From positions 124,001 to 188,000 of the forward strand of contig JAEKKJ010000008.1 in the NCBI GenBank assembly GCA_019510435.1: 64,000 bases of DNA, given 5' to 3'. The translations under genes and the position numbers were made by a program. Position 1 is the stretch's first letter. Each line of letters opens with the position of its first letter. Below are positions 49,903 to 57,858 of the stretch, piece after piece. The stretch is from Caulobacterales bacterium (GTDB taxonomy: Bacteria; Pseudomonadota; Alphaproteobacteria; Caulobacterales; Caulobacteraceae). The notes beneath the pieces are model-generated. The model saw nothing but the letters and a program-made list of their open reading frames with translations, did not search any database and was not told the origin of the DNA.

Positions 49903-51609
<1,707 letters not shown>

Positions 51610-52562: not shown

Positions 52563-53390
52563 TCAGGCTCTCCACACACGGGGCAGGGGCCGGCCGTCGC
52601 GCAGCGCCTCCAGCGCCGGCAGCAACGTCTGGCGCAGGACAAAGCCGTCGGCCGCCGCGACCCGCGCGAACAGCTTGCCGTCGAAGGCGCTGGCCCCGCC
52701 GCGGGGCCCGAGCGCGGCGCGCACCGCCGGCAGGAACCGCTCCGCATCGTCCGCCACGAGCAGCATCGAGGCGAAGGCCCGCGCGCCGGCCAGGACGCAG
52801 GCCTTGGCCGCCAGGTCGGTGATGGCGCCCTCCAGGCGCAGGTCGTCGGCGAACACCAGCCGGCCCTCGCGGCGGATCCGCCAGCGGTCGGCCAGGCGGC
52901 CGTGGCGCACGCTCTCGCCCATGGCCTCCCGGCCCAGGACCACGGCCTCCACCGCCAGCAGCCGCGCATCGGCCGCCAGGTCCGCCTCCAGCCGCCGGGC
53001 CAGGGCGCCGCCGTCGAACAGGATCGTCTCCTGCGGCAGCCAGTCGAGGCTCGCCCCCTCGCCGAGGTCCAGGGTGACGGCGGTCTCCGCCTGTCCGGCC
53101 CGCGCCCGGTAGACCTTCTCACAGGCCTGGGTGGTGAGGGTCAGCCGCGCGCCGGGCCCGACCTCGGCGTCCCACGTGAGCCGGTCTCCGTCGGTGAGGC
53201 CGCCGGACGAGTTGATCAGCACCGCCTCCAGGCCGAGGGCGCTATGGTCGCGCGGCAGGCGGATCTTGCCGCAGCCATCCTGGTAGAGGCGCGCCAGACA
53301 GGTCTTGCCGTCCTCGGCGCGCACGGCGATGCGCGCGGCGCCGCGCGCACGCTGCAGGGCGGTCGGCAATGAGGCAGGCCCCTGGATCAC
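52563..53390 (-). CDS. ureD: Urease accessory protein UreD
   Basis: 275 residues from a GTG at 53390 preceded by AGGGTGA; a longer in-frame extension upstream is Arg-rich and unsupported. The UreD core is seen in [53 protein letters not shown] and [20 protein letters not shown]. It is the scaffold for UreF and UreG on apo-urease. It is the first gene of the leftward operon ureD-A-orf-B-C-E-F-G, divergent from the URC genes. Confidence 0.92.
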
Positions 53391-53555
53391 CGGCTCACCC
53401 TGGGGCGGTTGCGGCAAGTGTCCAGACAACCGCGACCGTGGGCGCCCCGTCAACCGCCGGCGCCCAGGTTTTAGGCGCCATGTCGTCCCGCGCCGGCCGA
53501 GGCGGGCCGCCACACGACTTGCCAAGGGGCTTCGGCAGAGGCAGCATCCCCGCTC
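53391..53555. promoter_or_regulatory. Divergent control region between the urease and URC operons
   Basis: The ureD-to-urc1 gap is 259 bp, the largest in the window. This part holds no open frame with gene-like features. It must contain promoters for both urease and the uracil-degradation genes; no clear -35/-10 pair or operator is visible. The downstream part is described separately as the URC leader. Confidence 0.4.
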
Positions 53556-53594
53556 AAAGGCCCTGCGCCGGCGAACCCGGCGACAGGGCCTTTT
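53556..53594 (+). terminator. Terminator-like hairpin in the URC leader (candidate attenuator)
   Basis: AAAGGCCCTG (53556-53565) pairs perfectly with CAGGGCCTTT (53584-53593), extended inward by six more pairs with one bulged A, and ends in TTTT. Upstream of it on this strand is only the divergent ureD gene, so it is in the 5' leader of urc1 rather than after a gene. This suggests premature termination control. Confidence 0.55.
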
Positions 53595-53638
53595 CGACTC
53601 TGGGCCTTATCGACTCTGGGCCTTTTCGACTCTGGAGG
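53591..53638 (+). repeat. Three 16-bp tandem repeats directly upstream of urc1
   Basis: TTTTCGACTCTGGGCC, TTATCGACTCTGGGCC and TTTTCGACTCTGGAGG follow without gaps. The GGAGG in the third copy is the urc1 ribosome-binding site, 11 bases before the ATG. The GGGCCTT(T) parts at 53602 and 53618 copy the 3' arm of the hairpin above and could pair with its 5' arm instead. Confidence 0.8.
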
Positions 53639-53649
53639 TTCAACTGCCC

Positions 53650-54906
53650 ATGTCCGGCAACAGGACATCCCATATCCGCCTGACCTCGCACCCGGGGGGC
53701 GGCAGCACGAGCCGCTTCCCCATCCACTGGGACGCCCCCACGGCGCGCGAGCGCGGCCCGGTGATCGCCACCGTCAACGCCGGCGCCGACCGCAACGCCA
53801 TCGGCGCCCACGGCGGCGCCTACTCCGTCTACCGCGCCCTGGCGGTCGCGAGCGGCGCCATGGACCCGATGGTCCGGCCCGAGCTGGTCAACACCCACCC
53901 CGTGGTCCCGGTCGGCCCGCATCCGCAGTGGAGCGAGCCGGGCAAGATCGTCTCGCTCGACCCTTGGGGCGCCCGCATCGCCGAGGACTTCGCCCCCGAG
54001 ATTGCCGAGGGCGTCGACATCCGCCCCACCATCGCCGTCACCAAGGCCCGCATCGACCTGCCGGAGATCCACGAGGCGATCCGCGCCGGACGGCTGAAGC
54101 CCGACGGCAAGGTGCTGCACGACACCGGCGACGTGGCCGTCACCAAGGCCGCCATCGACCCGGTCTGGCACCTGCCCGGCGTCGCCGCCCGCTTCGGCGT
54201 CGAGGAGACCCAGCTGCGCCGGGTGCTGTTCGAGCAGACCGGCGGCATGTACCCGGAGCTGGTCACCCGGCCGGACCTATCGGTGTTCCTGCCCCCCATC
54301 GGCGGGATCACGCTCTACATCTTCGGCGACGCGACCAAGCTGGGCGACCGCTCCGTGCCGCTGACCTGCCGGGTGCACGACGAGTGCAACGGCTCCGACG
54401 TGTTCGGCTCCGACATCTGCACCTGCCGGCCCTACCTGACCCACGGGATCGAGGAGGCGACGCGCCAGGCCCAGGCGGGCGGAACCGGCCTGATCGCCTA
54501 CAACCGCAAGGAAGGCCGCGCCCTGGGCGAGGTGACCAAGTTCCTGGTCTACAACGCGCGCAAGCGCCAGCCGGGCGGCGACCAGGCGGCCACCTACTTC
54601 GAGCGCACCGAGTGCGTGGCCGGCGTGCAGGACGCGCGCTTCCAGCAACTGATGCCCGACGTGATCCACTGGCTGGGCATCCGCCGGATCGACCGCTTCG
54701 TCTCCATGTCCAACATGAAGTACGACGCCATGGTGGCCGGGGGCATTGAGATCGGCGAGCGCGTGCCCATCCCCGCCGACCTGATCCCGCCCGACGCCAG
54801 CGTCGAGATGGAGGCCAAGAAGGCGGCCGGCTACTTCACGCCGGAGGGCGCGCCGTCCGAGGCCGACCTGAAGAAGACTGTCGGCCGCGACCTGAAGGAA
54901 TTCTAG
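53650..54906 (+). CDS. GTP cyclohydrolase II-like protein of uracil degradation (URC1)
   Basis: 418 residues. The C-terminal half is a GTP cyclohydrolase II domain with the zinc ligands spaced C-x10-C-x-C (VHDECNGSDVFGSDICTC) and an altered catalytic motif (YNRKEGRALGEVTKFLVYNARK, where riboflavin enzymes have QEGRGIG). The N-terminal 200 residues are specific to the URC1 group. Adjacent DUF1688 and upp genes match the URC pathway first described in the yeast Lachancea kluyveri, where uracil is degraded via UMP with release of urea. This is therefore probably not riboflavin synthesis. Urease is divergent next door. Confidence 0.85.
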   Translation: MSGNRTSHIRLTSHPGGGSTSRFPIHWDAPTARERGPVIATVNAGADRNAIGAHGGAYSVYRALAVASGAMDPMVRPELVNTHPVVPVGPHPQWSEPGKIVSLDPWGARIAEDFAPEIAEGVDIRPTIAVTKARIDLPEIHEAIRAGRLKPDGKVLHDTGDVAVTKAAIDPVWHLPGVAARFGVEETQLRRVLFEQTGGMYPELVTRPDLSVFLPPIGGITLYIFGDATKLGDRSVPLTCRVHDECNGSDVFGSDICTCRPYLTHGIEEATRQAQAGGTGLIAYNRKEGRALGEVTKFLVYNARKRQPGGDQAATYFERTECVAGVQDARFQQLMPDVIHWLGIRRIDRFVSMSNMKYDAMVAGGIEIGERVPIPADLIPPDASVEMEAKKAAGYFTPEGAPSEADLKKTVGRDLKEF

Positions 54907-56076
54907 TTGTCGCAGGGGGATGTCGATCAGGCCCGCGACCTGCTCACGGCCGGCGCCGTGCGCAACCGGGCCAACGAGATGCTGGGGCTCGCCGAGGCCC
55001 TGCAGCTCCAGGAATGGCGGGTGGACCTGTGGCGCATGGACGCGGCCGCCGACCTGACCGCCGAGACCGTCCGCGCCAACTATCCGGATCTGGAGGTCCC
55101 GTTCCACGCCCGCTGGCGGCACTTCACCGCGGGCGGGCGCGACCTCTGGGCCGAGCTGGAGACGCCCACCGATCCGACTGAGCTGGGGCGCGCCGCCTTC
55201 GACCTGGTGATCCCGTCGGTGCTGCTGGACGCCGGCGCCGGGCCGGCCTGGCGCTACCGGGACGCAGCGACCGGGGCGGAGCTGGCCCGATCGGAGGGCC
55301 TGGGCGTGGCCTCGTTCCGGCTGTTCCAGTCGGGCGCCCTGTCCTCGGACCCCTCCGATCCGCTGCGGGCCGATGCGCTGGAGCGGGTGGAGGCGGCGAC
55401 GATCGCGCGGGCCTTCCAGGTGAGCGACGATAATCCGCTGGCGGGCCTGGAGGGTCGCGCGGCCCTGCTGCGGCGGCTTGGCAAGGCCGTGGGGCGGCCG
55501 GGCGACCTGTTCGACGCCATGGTCGCCAGGACCAAGCGCGGCCTCTTGCCCGCGCCGGTGATCCTGGAGGTGCTGCTCGAGGCGCTGGGACCGATCTGGC
55601 CGGGCCGGCTCAGCCTGGGCGGCCTGCCGCTGGGCGACTGCTGGCGCCATCCGGCCGCCAGCGGCCTGGTGCCCCTGCACAAGCTCAGCCAGTGGATGAG
55701 CTATTCGCTGATCGAGCCGCTGGAGGCCGCGGGCGTCAGCGTCATCGACGTCGACGGCCTCACGGGGCTCGCCGAATACCGCAACGGCGGGCTCTTCGTG
55801 GACACCGGGGTCCTGGCGCTCAGCGATCCCGCCGACGCGGGCCGCGCCCATCCGGTGGACAGCCCGCTGGTGGTGGGCTGGCGCTCGCTGACGGTGGCCC
55901 TGCTGGACCGCCTGGCGCCCATGGTCCGCGAGCGGCTGGGGGTCAGCGCCAAGGCCTTTCCGTTGGCCCGGGTGCTGGAGGGCGGCAGCTGGGCCGCGGG
56001 CCGGCGCATCGCCCGGGAGAAACGGGCGGACGGCGGCCCGCCCGTCGCCGTCATCTCCGACGGCACCGTGTTCTAG
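54907..56076 (+). CDS. DUF1688-family uracil-degradation protein (URC4)
   Basis: 389 residues from a TTG start that abuts the urc1 stop, with GAAGGA upstream. The family pattern is [10 protein letters not shown]-like [23 protein letters not shown] at the start, [16 protein letters not shown], and the C-terminal [21 protein letters not shown] and [23 protein letters not shown]1688 proteins are URC4 of the uracil catabolic pathway, needed for breakdown but of unknown chemistry. The gene order urc1-urc4-upp is the recurring bacterial arrangement. Confidence 0.87.
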
Positions 56077-56087
56077 GGGGACTAAGG

Positions 56088-56729
56088 ATGGCTCGGCAGA
56101 GCAAGGGCGTCACCGTCGTCGATCACCCGCTGGTGCAGCACAAGCTGACCCTGATGCGGAAGAAGGACACCTCCACCAAGAGCTTCCGCCAGCTGCTCAA
56201 GGAGATCGGCGCGTTGCTCTGCTACGAGGTCACCCGCGACCTGCCGCTGGAGATGATCGAGATCGAGACGCCGCTCACCACGATGCAGGCGCCGCAGCTG
56301 GTGGGCAAGAAGCTGGTGTTCGCCCCGATCCTGCGCTCGGGCATGGGCATGCTGGACGGGATGCTGGACCTGGCGCCCGCCGCGCGCGTCGCCCACGTGG
56401 GCCTCTATCGCGACCCGGCCACGCTCGCCTGCGTGGAGTACTACTTCAAGGCCCCGGCTGACCTGGCCGACCGCCTGGTGGTGGTGATCGACCCGATGCT
56501 CGCCACCGGCAACACCGCCATCGCCGCCGTGGACCGGCTGATGGAGGCGGGCGCCCGCGAAATCCGCCTGGCCTGCCTGCTGGCCAGCCCCGAGGGCCTG
56601 TCGAAGTTCCAGGGGCACCATCCCAACGTCCGCGTCTGGACCGCGGCCGTAGACGAGCAGCTGAACGACCACGGCTACATCCTGCCCGGCCTGGGCGACG
56701 CCGGCGACCGGATGTACGGCACGCGCTGA
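56088..56729 (+). CDS. upp: Uracil phosphoribosyltransferase
   Basis: 213 residues, full length. [35 protein letters not shown] opens it, the PRPP-binding motif is [21 protein letters not shown], and the uracil pocket is in [18 protein letters not shown]. It makes UMP from uracil and PRPP. In the URC pathway this is the committing step, so in this operon it probably serves degradation as well as salvage. It starts 11 bp after the DUF1688 gene. Confidence 0.95.
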
Positions 56730-56849: not shown

Positions 56850-56959
56850 TCCCATTGATCCCGGTGTCAGCCAGCCCAGAGTGGCCAGGCCCTCTCAGGG
56901 CGTTCTCCTTCCTCGCACTTCGAGGGCCGCGCGGTTCGACGGCGCGGCCCTCTTCTTTT
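56850..56959 (+). ncRNA. Possible small RNA or 3'-UTR-derived RNA ending at the URC terminator
   Basis: Downstream of upp, a short hairpin GCCCT-CTC-AGGGC (56889-56901) is followed by a single-stranded pyrimidine-rich run (CGTTCTCCTTCCTCGCACTT) and then by a strong intrinsic terminator. Hairpin, C/U-rich loop and terminator is the shape of many alphaproteobacterial sRNAs that bind Shine-Dalgarno regions. No promoter is evident, so it could also be just a long 3' UTR. Confidence 0.2.
56922..56959 (+). terminator. Intrinsic terminator of the URC operon
   Basis: GAGGGCCGCGC (56922-56932) pairs perfectly with GCGCGGCCCTC (56942-56952), an 11-bp stem followed by TTCTTTT. The T-tract orientation terminates rightward transcription, from upp, before it reaches the leftward beta-lactamase gene. 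Confidence 0.85.
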
Positions 56960-56964
56960 GCGGC

Positions 56965-57858
56965 TCAGCCGCCGAAGCCCGAGGTGGTCAGGAGGCGCGC
57001 CACGGAGGCCAGGGCGGCGTCGCGCCCGCCGCCGCCGACCGTCGCCTGCGTGAGATAGACCGAGATCAGCAGCGGAGCGCGGCCCGGCGGCCAGATCACC
57101 GCGATGTCGTTGGTCGTGCCGTGGCCGCCGGAACCGGTCTTGTCCCCGACACGCCACCCCTCCGGCAGCCCCGCCCGCAGACGCTTGCCGCCCGTCTGGT
57201 TGGCGACCAGCCAGGCCGTCAGCTGGGCTCGCGAGCTGGCCGACAGGGCGTCGCCCAGCGTGAGCTTGCGCAGGCTGTCCAGCATTGCAGCCGGGCTTGT
57301 CGTGTCCCGCACGTCGCCGGGGACGGCCTCGCTCATCTCGGTCTCGTGGCGGTCCAGGCGGGTGACCTGATCGCCCAGGCTGCGCCAGAACGCGGTGAGG
57401 GCCGGCGGACCGCCGACCGCCTCCAGCAGCAGGTTCGCGGCCGTGTTGTCGCTCTGCGTGACCGCGGCCTCGCAAAGCGTCCGGATCGGCAGGCCGGCGC
57501 CCACATGCTTCTCGGTCACCGGCGCATAGTTCACCAGCGCCTCCGGCCCGTAGGCCACGACCCGATCCAGCCGCTCGCGCCCCTCGTCCGCCCGCTTCAG
57601 CACCAGGGCGGCGAGCGAGGCCTTAAAGGTGCTGCACATCGGATAGCGCTCGTCGGCGCGGTAGGCGAACCGGGCCTGGGTCTGCAGGTCCAGCGCCGCC
57701 ACGCCCAGCCGCCCGCCGCTCATGCGTTCGATGTCGGCCATACGCCGGCTAATGGCGGAGCGTGCGGCGGCGGCGAGCACGGGCGCGCCCGCGCCGACGG
57801 CCAGAGCTGCGGCTGGCGTCGCCGCCAAGGCGGCCAACAGGGTTCTACGGTCGAGCAT
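56965..57858 (-). CDS. Class A beta-lactamase
   Basis: 297 residues from the ATG at 57858, which has a perfect AGGAGGTGA site; an upstream in-frame ATG lacks one. DRRTLLAALAATPAAALA looks like a Tat signal. The class A motifs are all present: PMCSTFKAS (Ser76, Lys79), VTQSDNTAANLLL, HETEMSEAVPGD with the general-base glutamate, and GDKTGSGGHGT. A cysteine precedes the active serine as in some broad-spectrum enzymes, but its usual partner at position 238 is glycine. It is divergent from ampR, so induction by cell-wall fragments is expected. The spectrum cannot be predicted. Confidence 0.95.
   Translation of the reverse strand: MLDRRTLLAALAATPAAALAVGAGAPVLAAAARSAISRRMADIERMSGGRLGVAALDLQTQARFAYRADERYPMCSTFKASLAALVLKRADEGRERLDRVVAYGPEALVNYAPVTEKHVGAGLPIRTLCEAAVTQSDNTAANLLLEAVGGPPALTAFWRSLGDQVTRLDRHETEMSEAVPGDVRDTTSPAAMLDSLRKLTLGDALSASSRAQLTAWLVANQTGGKRLRAGLPEGWRVGDKTGSGGHGTTNDIAVIWPPGRAPLLISVYLTQATVGGGGRDAALASVARLLTTSGFGG

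What the first reader, a model, noticed from the sequence alone, without database searches (positions are those of the whole stretch)
53556..53638. Terminator-like hairpin plus three 16-bp tandem repeats in the URC leader: candidate attenuator
Seen: a 16-bp stem with TTTT lies in the 5' leader with no gene before it on that strand. It is followed by three 16-bp repeats whose GGGCCTT units copy the hairpin's own 3' arm, and the last repeat carries the ribosome-binding site. Inference: the 5' arm can pair with several alternative partners, a layout suited to switching between termination and read-through, perhaps in response to UTP, uracil or an RNA-binding protein. I know of no described leader of this form for URC genes.
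Basis: partly seen in the sequence, partly recalled or inferred. Interest (0 to 1): 0.75.

Follow-up and report, generated by a model that had tools for sequence, protein, structure and literature searches.

The report
Conserved terminator-like hairpin before URC operon
A uracil-breakdown operon in these bacteria starts with a short, strongly conserved RNA hairpin that looks like a transcription stop signal set right at the start of the message; the extra tandem repeats that drew attention are a peculiarity of a few species and not part of a conserved switch.

Summary
The hairpin and repeats are real. The hairpin (53556-53593, 16 bp, one bulge, -30 kcal/mol, UUUU) stands before urc1 in 43 of 57 genomes of the window's family that have this gene (25 of 25 in its genus), one strong copy per genome, with compensatory changes, under a TTGCCA promoter at fixed distance (36 nt in 31 of 32). 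The predicted start falls on the foot of the hairpin; in most relatives the Shine-Dalgarno sequence follows the stem by about 8 nt. Tail and stem resemble predicted intrinsic terminators of the same genome. Rfam has no such family. The repeats are not conserved: the tandem junction occurs at this leader in 2 of 101 genomes of the genus (28 of them known here to have the leader). Copies 2 and 3 lie behind the termination point, and pairing the 5' arm with them costs 10-13 kcal/mol, so the alternating-arm attenuator is not supported. Most likely this is a promoter-proximal, terminator-type 5' stem-loop that stops part of the transcripts about 45 nt after the start and caps the rest; a pure mRNA-protection or translation role is nearly as likely. 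Termination and uracil response are untested. URC leaders of a sister genus carry a different conserved structured leader.

The parts
53519..53524 (+). -35 element TTGCCA of the predicted promoter
   Evidence: TTGCCA in 29 of 32 leaders, TTGTCA in 2, TTGCAA in 1; distance to the hairpin 36 nt in 31 of 32, 37 in 1
53542..53547 (+). -10 element CAGCAT, 17 nt after the -35
   Evidence: at this place A at position 2 in 27 of 32 and T at position 6 in 31 of 32 leaders; otherwise variable; the tool's promoter scan gave 0 hits
53554..53554 (+). predicted transcription start (+/- 2 nt), in TCAAAGG, which is invariant in 15 of 15 aligned leaders
   Evidence: 7 nt after the -10 element; inferred, not measured
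53556..53593 (+). terminator-type 5' hairpin, 16 bp with one bulge
   Evidence: -30.3 kcal/mol; 31 cells with changes on both sides vs 7.7 in shuffles, 0 of 500
53591..53594 (+). U-tract (TTTT; first three paired with AAA)
   Evidence: T run of 3 or more in 44 of 46 leaders, 4 or more in 38
53586..53633 (+). three 16-nt units; unit 1 = 3' arm of the hairpin, units 2 and 3 = lineage-specific tandem duplication
   Evidence: junction at this leader in 2 of 101 genus genomes
53634..53638 (+). Shine-Dalgarno GGAGG
53650..54906 (+). urc1: GTP cyclohydrolase II-like
   Evidence: Pfam PF12471 7e-81, PF00925 1e-12
54907..56076 (+). urc4: DUF1688
   Evidence: Pfam PF07958 7e-126
56088..56729 (+). uracil phosphoribosyltransferase (start codon inferred: ATG 56088)
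   Evidence: Pfam PF14681 4e-73
52563..53399 (-). divergent ureD (stretch used for the Pfam scan; start not determined)
   Evidence: Pfam PF01774 4e-53

Best explanation
The URC operon is transcribed from a promoter at 53519-53547 whose start point lies at the foot of a terminator-type hairpin, so the hairpin is the first thing the polymerase makes. Most likely it works as a promoter-proximal intrinsic terminator (an attenuator without an antiterminator): part of the polymerases stop in or just after UUUUCG, about 45 nt from the start and, in most relatives, just before the Shine-Dalgarno sequence, and the operon is made only from those that read through. Read-through messages carry the stem-loop as a 5' cap near an exposed Shine-Dalgarno site. 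SHOWN: the hairpin, its covariation, its U-tract, the fixed promoter-hairpin distance, its single strong copy and its link to urc1. INFERRED: promoter use, start site, real termination, and any regulation of it. The extra repeat copies look like a slippage duplication in a few species.
For: 43 of 57 family genomes with urc1 at E<=1e-150 have the element at >=41 bits: 25/25 of the window's genus, 17/17 of g22, 1/1 of g21. Of 45 hits at >=41 bits in 299 genomes, 44 lie before urc1, one per genome. Covariation. Hairpins of 46 leaders -22.3 to -31.2 kcal/mol, T-tail score mean 3.38, against 3.44 for the 15 strongest hairpin+TTT entries of 464 kb of the own genome. Identity over 15 leaders: 5' arm 0.93 (lower) and 0.87 (upper) vs 0.66 at four-fold sites of urc1 and 0.31 upstream. 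Nearest upstream ORF is divergent in 34 of 40 and differs between genomes (crude ORF calls). Hairpin + T tail + SD also before urc1 in two genomes of another family (L306, L307, one genus) and by eye in L304. Hairpins of <=-20 kcal/mol with TTT ending 10-45 nt before a start codon: 4 of 342 predicted genes, one of them this hairpin read backwards.
Against: Termination is not measured. The U-tract is short (run of exactly 4 in 28 of 46, T's 1-3 paired). Two of 46 leaders (L014, L236) have a broken U-tract but keep the hairpin; 14 of 57 urc1 genomes lack the element, 11 of them (g3) with another leader. No alternative RNA structure was found that could make termination conditional. The near-fixed hairpin-SD distance (44-47 nt from hairpin start in 29 of 32) and the strict 5'-arm sequence (GCCGGCGA in 44 of 46) are not needed for termination. 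The comparison set is weak: the strong-terminator cut was mine, 2 of the 15 entries are one site, the reversed-sequence control gave 18 hits against 26 before the cut, and that scan missed this very hairpin because of its bulge. In some g22 genomes a small in-line ORF seems to end shortly upstream (L213; others by eye). 25 of 27 class leaders tested lack such a hairpin by the script.
Confidence: 0.45

Rival explanations
1. The hairpin is a 5'-terminal stem-loop that protects the mRNA from 5'-end-dependent decay and keeps the Shine-Dalgarno site open (ompA-like), with the U-rich stretch serving ribosome binding; termination is incidental.
For: Predicted start at the foot of the stem; SD follows at near-fixed distance; hairpin kept where the U-tract is lost (L014, L236); the consensus structure of seven g3 leaders also has a GGACA/TGTCC stem near the 5' end, without U-tract. 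5' UTR stem-loops confer stability in recA and vacA (PMC7509114, passages).
Against: A protective stem would not need AAA/UUU at its base plus a fourth U; a T run of 4 or more is kept in 38 of 46 and the tail resembles that of the genome's predicted terminators. The same review reports that a stem-loop placed too close to the SD lowered stability in delta-ermC.
Confidence: 0.35
2. Binding site: the conserved GCCGGCGA / 5' arm is recognised by an RNA-binding protein, a small RNA, or as DNA by a repressor just downstream of the start; or the terminated ~45-nt RNA itself acts as a small RNA.
For: GCCGGCGA in 44 of 46 leaders although its pairing partner varies (alignment), and GCCGGCG in L212 where by eye it falls in the loop; 5' arm identity 0.87-0.93.
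Against: Missing in L217 (g9) and not at this place in the g3 leaders; no candidate binder identified; no second strong site in the genome.
Confidence: 0.12
3. One reading: the 5' arm alternates between its own 3' arm and the repeat copies to choose termination or read-through.
For: Copies 2 and 3 are complementary to the 5' arm.
Against: Native hairpin favoured by 13.2 and 10.2 kcal/mol over pairing with copies 2 and 3; copies are made after the U-tract; junction at this leader in 2 of 101 genus genomes.
Confidence: 0.03
4. Ordinary terminator of an upstream transcription unit that happens to lie before urc1.
For: Similar hairpin + TTTTCG + SD between in-line genes in L230; an in-line ORF lies upstream in 5 of 40 leaders.
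Against: Nearest upstream ORF divergent in the window and in 34 of 40; the promoter lies upstream of the hairpin at fixed distance.
Confidence: 0.05

Closest known systems
serC and ybhL leader elements of alpha-proteobacteria (Rfam RF00517, RF00520; PMC1273637, passages)
   Same: Small hairpin leader in alpha-proteobacteria with a putative start site directly before it (serC also with the start codon close behind); what they sense was not known to the authors.
   Different: In serC the last hairpin is suggested to take in the ribosome-binding site; here the SD lies free behind a U-tract. No Rfam match.
Pyrimidine-gene attenuators: B. subtilis pyr (PyrR) and pyrG (reiterative transcription); E. 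coli pyrBI, codBA, upp, carAB initial-transcript control (PMC4403831, PMC6245113, passages; details of pyrG antitermination recalled)
   Same: Pyrimidine genes; control in the first tens of nucleotides; in pyrG a terminator close to the start (recalled).
   Different: No Rfam match to a pyr leader, no room for a leader peptide, no G or T run at the start; here the run is AAA.
5'-terminal protective stem-loops (ompA recalled; recA, vacA in PMC7509114, passages)
   Same: Stem-loop at the 5' end near the SD.
   Different: This one has terminator form (A-tract, GC stem, U-tract).
S. pombe urg1-urg3 uracil-induced cluster (PMC2174524, passages)
   Same: Same three families (GTP cyclohydrolase II, UPRT, DUF1688), clustered and induced by uracil.
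   Different: A eukaryote; no bearing on the hairpin itself.

Membership tests
Intrinsic (Rho-independent) terminator | GC-rich stem-loop followed by a U-rich tract | tested here: met
   -30.3 kcal/mol stem; T-tail score 3.21 in the window, mean 3.38 in 46 leaders vs 3.44 in 15 genome entries. By the stricter tool rule of 5 T in 8 bases it is not called
Intrinsic (Rho-independent) terminator | RNA 3' ends about 7-9 nt after the hairpin | not testable with these tools
   no transcript data
Transcription attenuator with alternative RNA structures | conserved mutually exclusive antiterminator made before the terminator | tested here: not met
   predicted start 2 nt before the stem; alternative partners lie downstream, are unfavourable and not conserved
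Known Rfam families | match to a covariance model | tested here: not met
   window at gathering score: only 5_ureB_sRNA and suhB elsewhere; 12 loci at E<=1: two matches, neither at the leader
PyrR-type pyr attenuator | PyrR-binding loop and antiterminator | tested here: not met
   no Rfam hit at the leader; no room for an antiterminator before the stem; the loop motif itself was not scanned for apart from Rfam
Leader-peptide attenuator | short ORF before the terminator | tested here: not met
   stem begins about 2 nt after the predicted start; holds only if that start is right
5' mRNA-stabilising stem-loop | 5'-terminal stem with few unpaired 5' nucleotides | tested here: inconclusive
   predicted start 53554 vs stem 53556; start not measured
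5' mRNA-stabilising stem-loop | longer half-life with the stem | not testable with these tools
   needs an experiment

The most novel reading that the evidence does not exclude
A one-hairpin attenuator read by start-site choice: the TCAAAGG stretch is both the start region and the base of the terminator stem, so nucleotide pools that shift the start or make the polymerase stutter on AAA would lengthen or shorten the 5' arm and thereby set termination, letting pyrimidine levels control uracil breakdown without a ligand-binding RNA, regulator protein or leader peptide. It would join E. coli upp/codBA-type start control to a terminator.
Probability: 0.07. Interest if true: 0.75.

Novelty: new member of a known kind. 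Interest (0 to 1): 0.42.

Why it matters
How bacteria regulate the URC route of uracil breakdown was not found in the papers searched. A conserved, single-copy leader hairpin at the very start of the operon, under stronger constraint than silent sites of the gene it precedes, gives a small and testable control element, and a second, different structured leader in a sister genus suggests that leader-level control of this operon may be general. It also corrects the reading of the repeats.

Tried and rejected
Tried and set aside: (1) repeats as an interspersed genomic element: no other copy with fewer than 3 mismatches. (2) A regulon: no second strong site in the own genome; the six weaker hits elsewhere that I looked at (L230, L237-L241) are terminator-like hairpins, not urc leaders; the many other weak hits were not looked at. 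(3) 'TTTTCGNNTCTGGAG' as a general genomic motif: 33 hits vs 4 in the reversed-pattern control at up to 3 mismatches, 0 to 3 of them exact; a few contexts are terminator-like; not pursued. (4) A Caulobacter-type GCTANAWC promoter (recalled): the spacing did not fit. (6) Spread in the class: besides the window, 3 of 385 genomes have a hit at E<=1e-7, none at urc1. (7) A second family (f115): 5 of 5 genomes have urc1, the terminator-like leader is in 2 (L306, L307). (8) UTP-sensitive pausing in the U-tract: no evidence either way.

Rows dropped: 3 of 21 genus genomes carry only a 59-60% identical urc1-like gene (L019, L020, L022) with no such leader. Alignment A2 held 7 reverse-strand matches and was remade as A3: 46 rows, 40 distinct; two of the 48 sources (L212, L217) gave no match at that threshold. 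Distances were counted on 32 leaders, column identities on 15 of the 18 genus leaders, without L014, L017, L021, upstream ORFs on 40. In the class 36 of 385 genomes have urc1 at 1e-120; 28 of these leaders were read and 27 tested (L309 too short); for three of them no start codon was found in frame. The -10 label in the printout is off by three bases; the hexamer was recounted.

Full report
WHAT IS THERE. In the window the URC operon runs urc1 (53650-54906), urc4/DUF1688 (54907-56076) and uracil phosphoribosyltransferase (domains). ureD is divergent upstream. Between them lies a 16-bp hairpin with one bulge (53556-53593; -30.3 kcal/mol), UUUU, then the repeats: three 16-nt units of which the first is the hairpin's own 3' arm, then GGAGG and ATG. 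The stretch folds better than all 200 shuffles (z -3.3). The unit has no other copy with fewer than 3 mismatches in the genome.

WHAT IS CONSERVED. In 60 genomes of the genus, 21 have the protein at E<=0.001. The 18 with the close form have the same hairpin; the 3 with a 59-60% identical gene do not. A covariance model from these 18 was run on 299 genomes of the family: 45 genomes have a hit at or above 41 bits, 44 of these lie before urc1 and one (G224) is a hairpin between in-line genes. Below that the list runs on into many weak hits. Of 57 genomes with urc1 at 1e-150, 43 have the element: 25/25 in the window's genus, 17/17 in g22, 1/1 in g21, 0/11 in g3 and 0/3 in g6, g7, g9. By eye, g6 (L212) and g9 (L217) have a hairpin with a short T run and changed letters at the same place. 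Base pairs covary: on 40 distinct leaders 86.6% of cells pair, 31 cells have changes on both sides against 7.7 in shuffles (0 of 500), 5 such pairs against 2.3 (1 of 500); sliding the partner by 1-3 columns gives 1-8 cells. That alignment was fitted to the model and leans towards it; on the plain alignment RNAalifold kept 8 pairs, one with changes on both sides.

PROMOTER AND GEOMETRY. TTGCCA (29 of 32; TTGTCA 2, TTGCAA 1) stands 36 nt before the hairpin in 31 of 32 leaders and 37 in one. The hexamer 17 nt after it is variable but has A at position 2 in 27 of 32 and T at position 6 in 31 of 32. This puts the start at 53554 +/- 2, on the foot of the stem; it is inferred. A Z. mobilis study finds no conservation at position -7 in C. 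crescentus promoters (PMC7566282, passages), so the promoter call rests mainly on the -35 and its fixed distance. From hairpin start to SD is 44-47 nt in 29 of 32; the exceptions are the window (79), G039 (61) and L017 (68); SD to ATG, counted from the first SD base, varies from 9 to 31. Pairwise identity over 15 leaders is 0.31 upstream, 0.93 and 0.87 in the lower and upper 5' arm, against 0.66 at four-fold sites of urc1.

IS IT A TERMINATOR? By form it fits this genome: in 464 kb of own sequence the 15 strongest hairpin+TTT entries have T runs of 3-5 and mean tail score 3.44; the 46 leaders have mean 3.38 and runs of 3 or more in 44. Limits: the reversed-sequence control gave 18 hits against 26 before my score cut, two of the 15 entries are one site, and the scan missed this hairpin because of its bulge. 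Such hairpins are rare close before start codons: 4 of 342 predicted genes at <=-20 kcal/mol, one being this hairpin read on the other strand (gene calls are crude, and the test window of 10-45 nt leaves out this hairpin itself because of the repeats). In the class, 2 of 27 urc1 leaders tested have one (L306, L307, one genus), and L304 by eye. Termination itself is not shown.

THE SWITCH MODEL. Copies 2 and 3 are made after the termination point. Forcing the 5' arm onto copy 2 or 3 gives -49.4 or -52.4 kcal/mol against -62.6. The tandem junction was sought with up to 2 mismatches in 101 genomes of the genus: exact matches only in the window genome and G039, both at the leader; 7 others have one match each with 2 mismatches, in 4 of them on a contig other than that of the leader, in 3 no leader is known. 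28 genus genomes are known here to have the leader. L017 (G030), whose SD lies 68 nt away, may hold a decayed second unit (by eye). So the duplication is local and cannot be what selection has kept.

NEIGHBOURS. The nearest upstream ORF among 40 leaders is divergent in 34, in-line in 5 (two of these look like wrong ORF calls) and not found in 1; by eye the neighbours are ureD, adenosine deaminase, guanine deaminase and others (no search behind the names). In some g22 leaders the DNA just upstream looks like the end of a small in-line ORF (L213; others by eye). The element follows urc1, not one neighbour.

MECHANISM. I rank a promoter-proximal terminator-type stem-loop that limits transcription (0.45) above a pure 5' protection/translation element (0.35), with a sequence-specific binding site next (0.12). 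Nothing here shows a response to uracil. The same three gene families are clustered and uracil-induced in S. pombe (PMC2174524, passages), and pyrimidine genes in other bacteria use start-region and terminator control (PMC4403831, PMC6245113, passages), which is why I state the start-choice attenuator as the boldest reading.

A SECOND LEADER. In g3 (perhaps Brevundimonas, a guess) 7 urc1 leaders share another element (CTGGACA...GTGTGTCCTG...GTCCGG...CCGG...GAGG); its model hits 7 of 299 family genomes at E<=1e-5, once each, and these are the seven leaders it was built from. Five further leaders (4 g3, 1 g7) share a looser pattern (CT-GACA...GGTG-CT-ACTG...ATTCC). No Rfam match at E<=1 for the five of these twelve loci that were tested.

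LITERATURE. Searches for URC1/URC4 with uracil catabolism (4 papers), Caulobacter leaders and terminators (12 papers; 61, 12 of 25 listed), GTP cyclohydrolase II/DUF1688/UPRT, Caulobacterales/Phenylobacterium RNA motifs, and terminator next to the SD showed no description of this leader in the titles and abstract starts; only open-licence PMC papers are held. PMC1273637, PMC7566282, PMC7509114, PMC2174524, PMC4117421, PMC4403831 and PMC6245113 were read as passages only.

Noticed in passing
L216 1418-1495; L220, L222, L224, L227, L228, L229 (g3); L219, L221, L223, L225, L226: urc1 leaders of a sister genus carry a different conserved leader with long invariant stretches (7 of 299 family genomes, the seven it was built from) and a looser second type; no Rfam match for the five loci tested. 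Candidate new leader RNA family.
   Followed up: partly
53596-53600, 53612-53616, 53628-53632 and the same place in relatives: A GANTC site (the CcrM methylation motif of Caulobacter, recalled) lies between hairpin and SD in 34 of 46 leaders, the N varying C 16, T 15, G 3; the window has three. It may also just be part of the terminator tail.
   Followed up: partly
L213, L214, L215, L218: SD to ATG is 24-31 nt, with, by eye, a self-complementary stretch between: a small hairpin may bring the two together.
   Followed up: no
G000:C35 near 190925 (in L291): An acyltransferase-like gene (by eye) is preceded, 22 nt before its start, by a very strong hairpin with CTTTTCGAACTGGAG (-37.8 kcal/mol): the same terminator-next-to-SD layout.
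   Followed up: no
L304, L306, L307: Terminator-like hairpins with T tail just before urc1 in two other families of the class (L304 by eye), different sequence.
   Followed up: partly
51173-51458 (+) and 56882-56965 (+): Rfam hits in the window: 5_ureB_sRNA (antisense to the urease alpha gene, 86 bits) and suhB/mmgR (43 bits).
   Followed up: no
L018/L023 (G010): urc1 of this genome matches in two pieces in different frames (residues 1-290 and 283-418).
   Followed up: no
L017 1419-1503: The leader of G030 has a 68-nt hairpin-to-SD distance and may hold a decayed second copy of the repeat unit (by eye).
   Followed up: no
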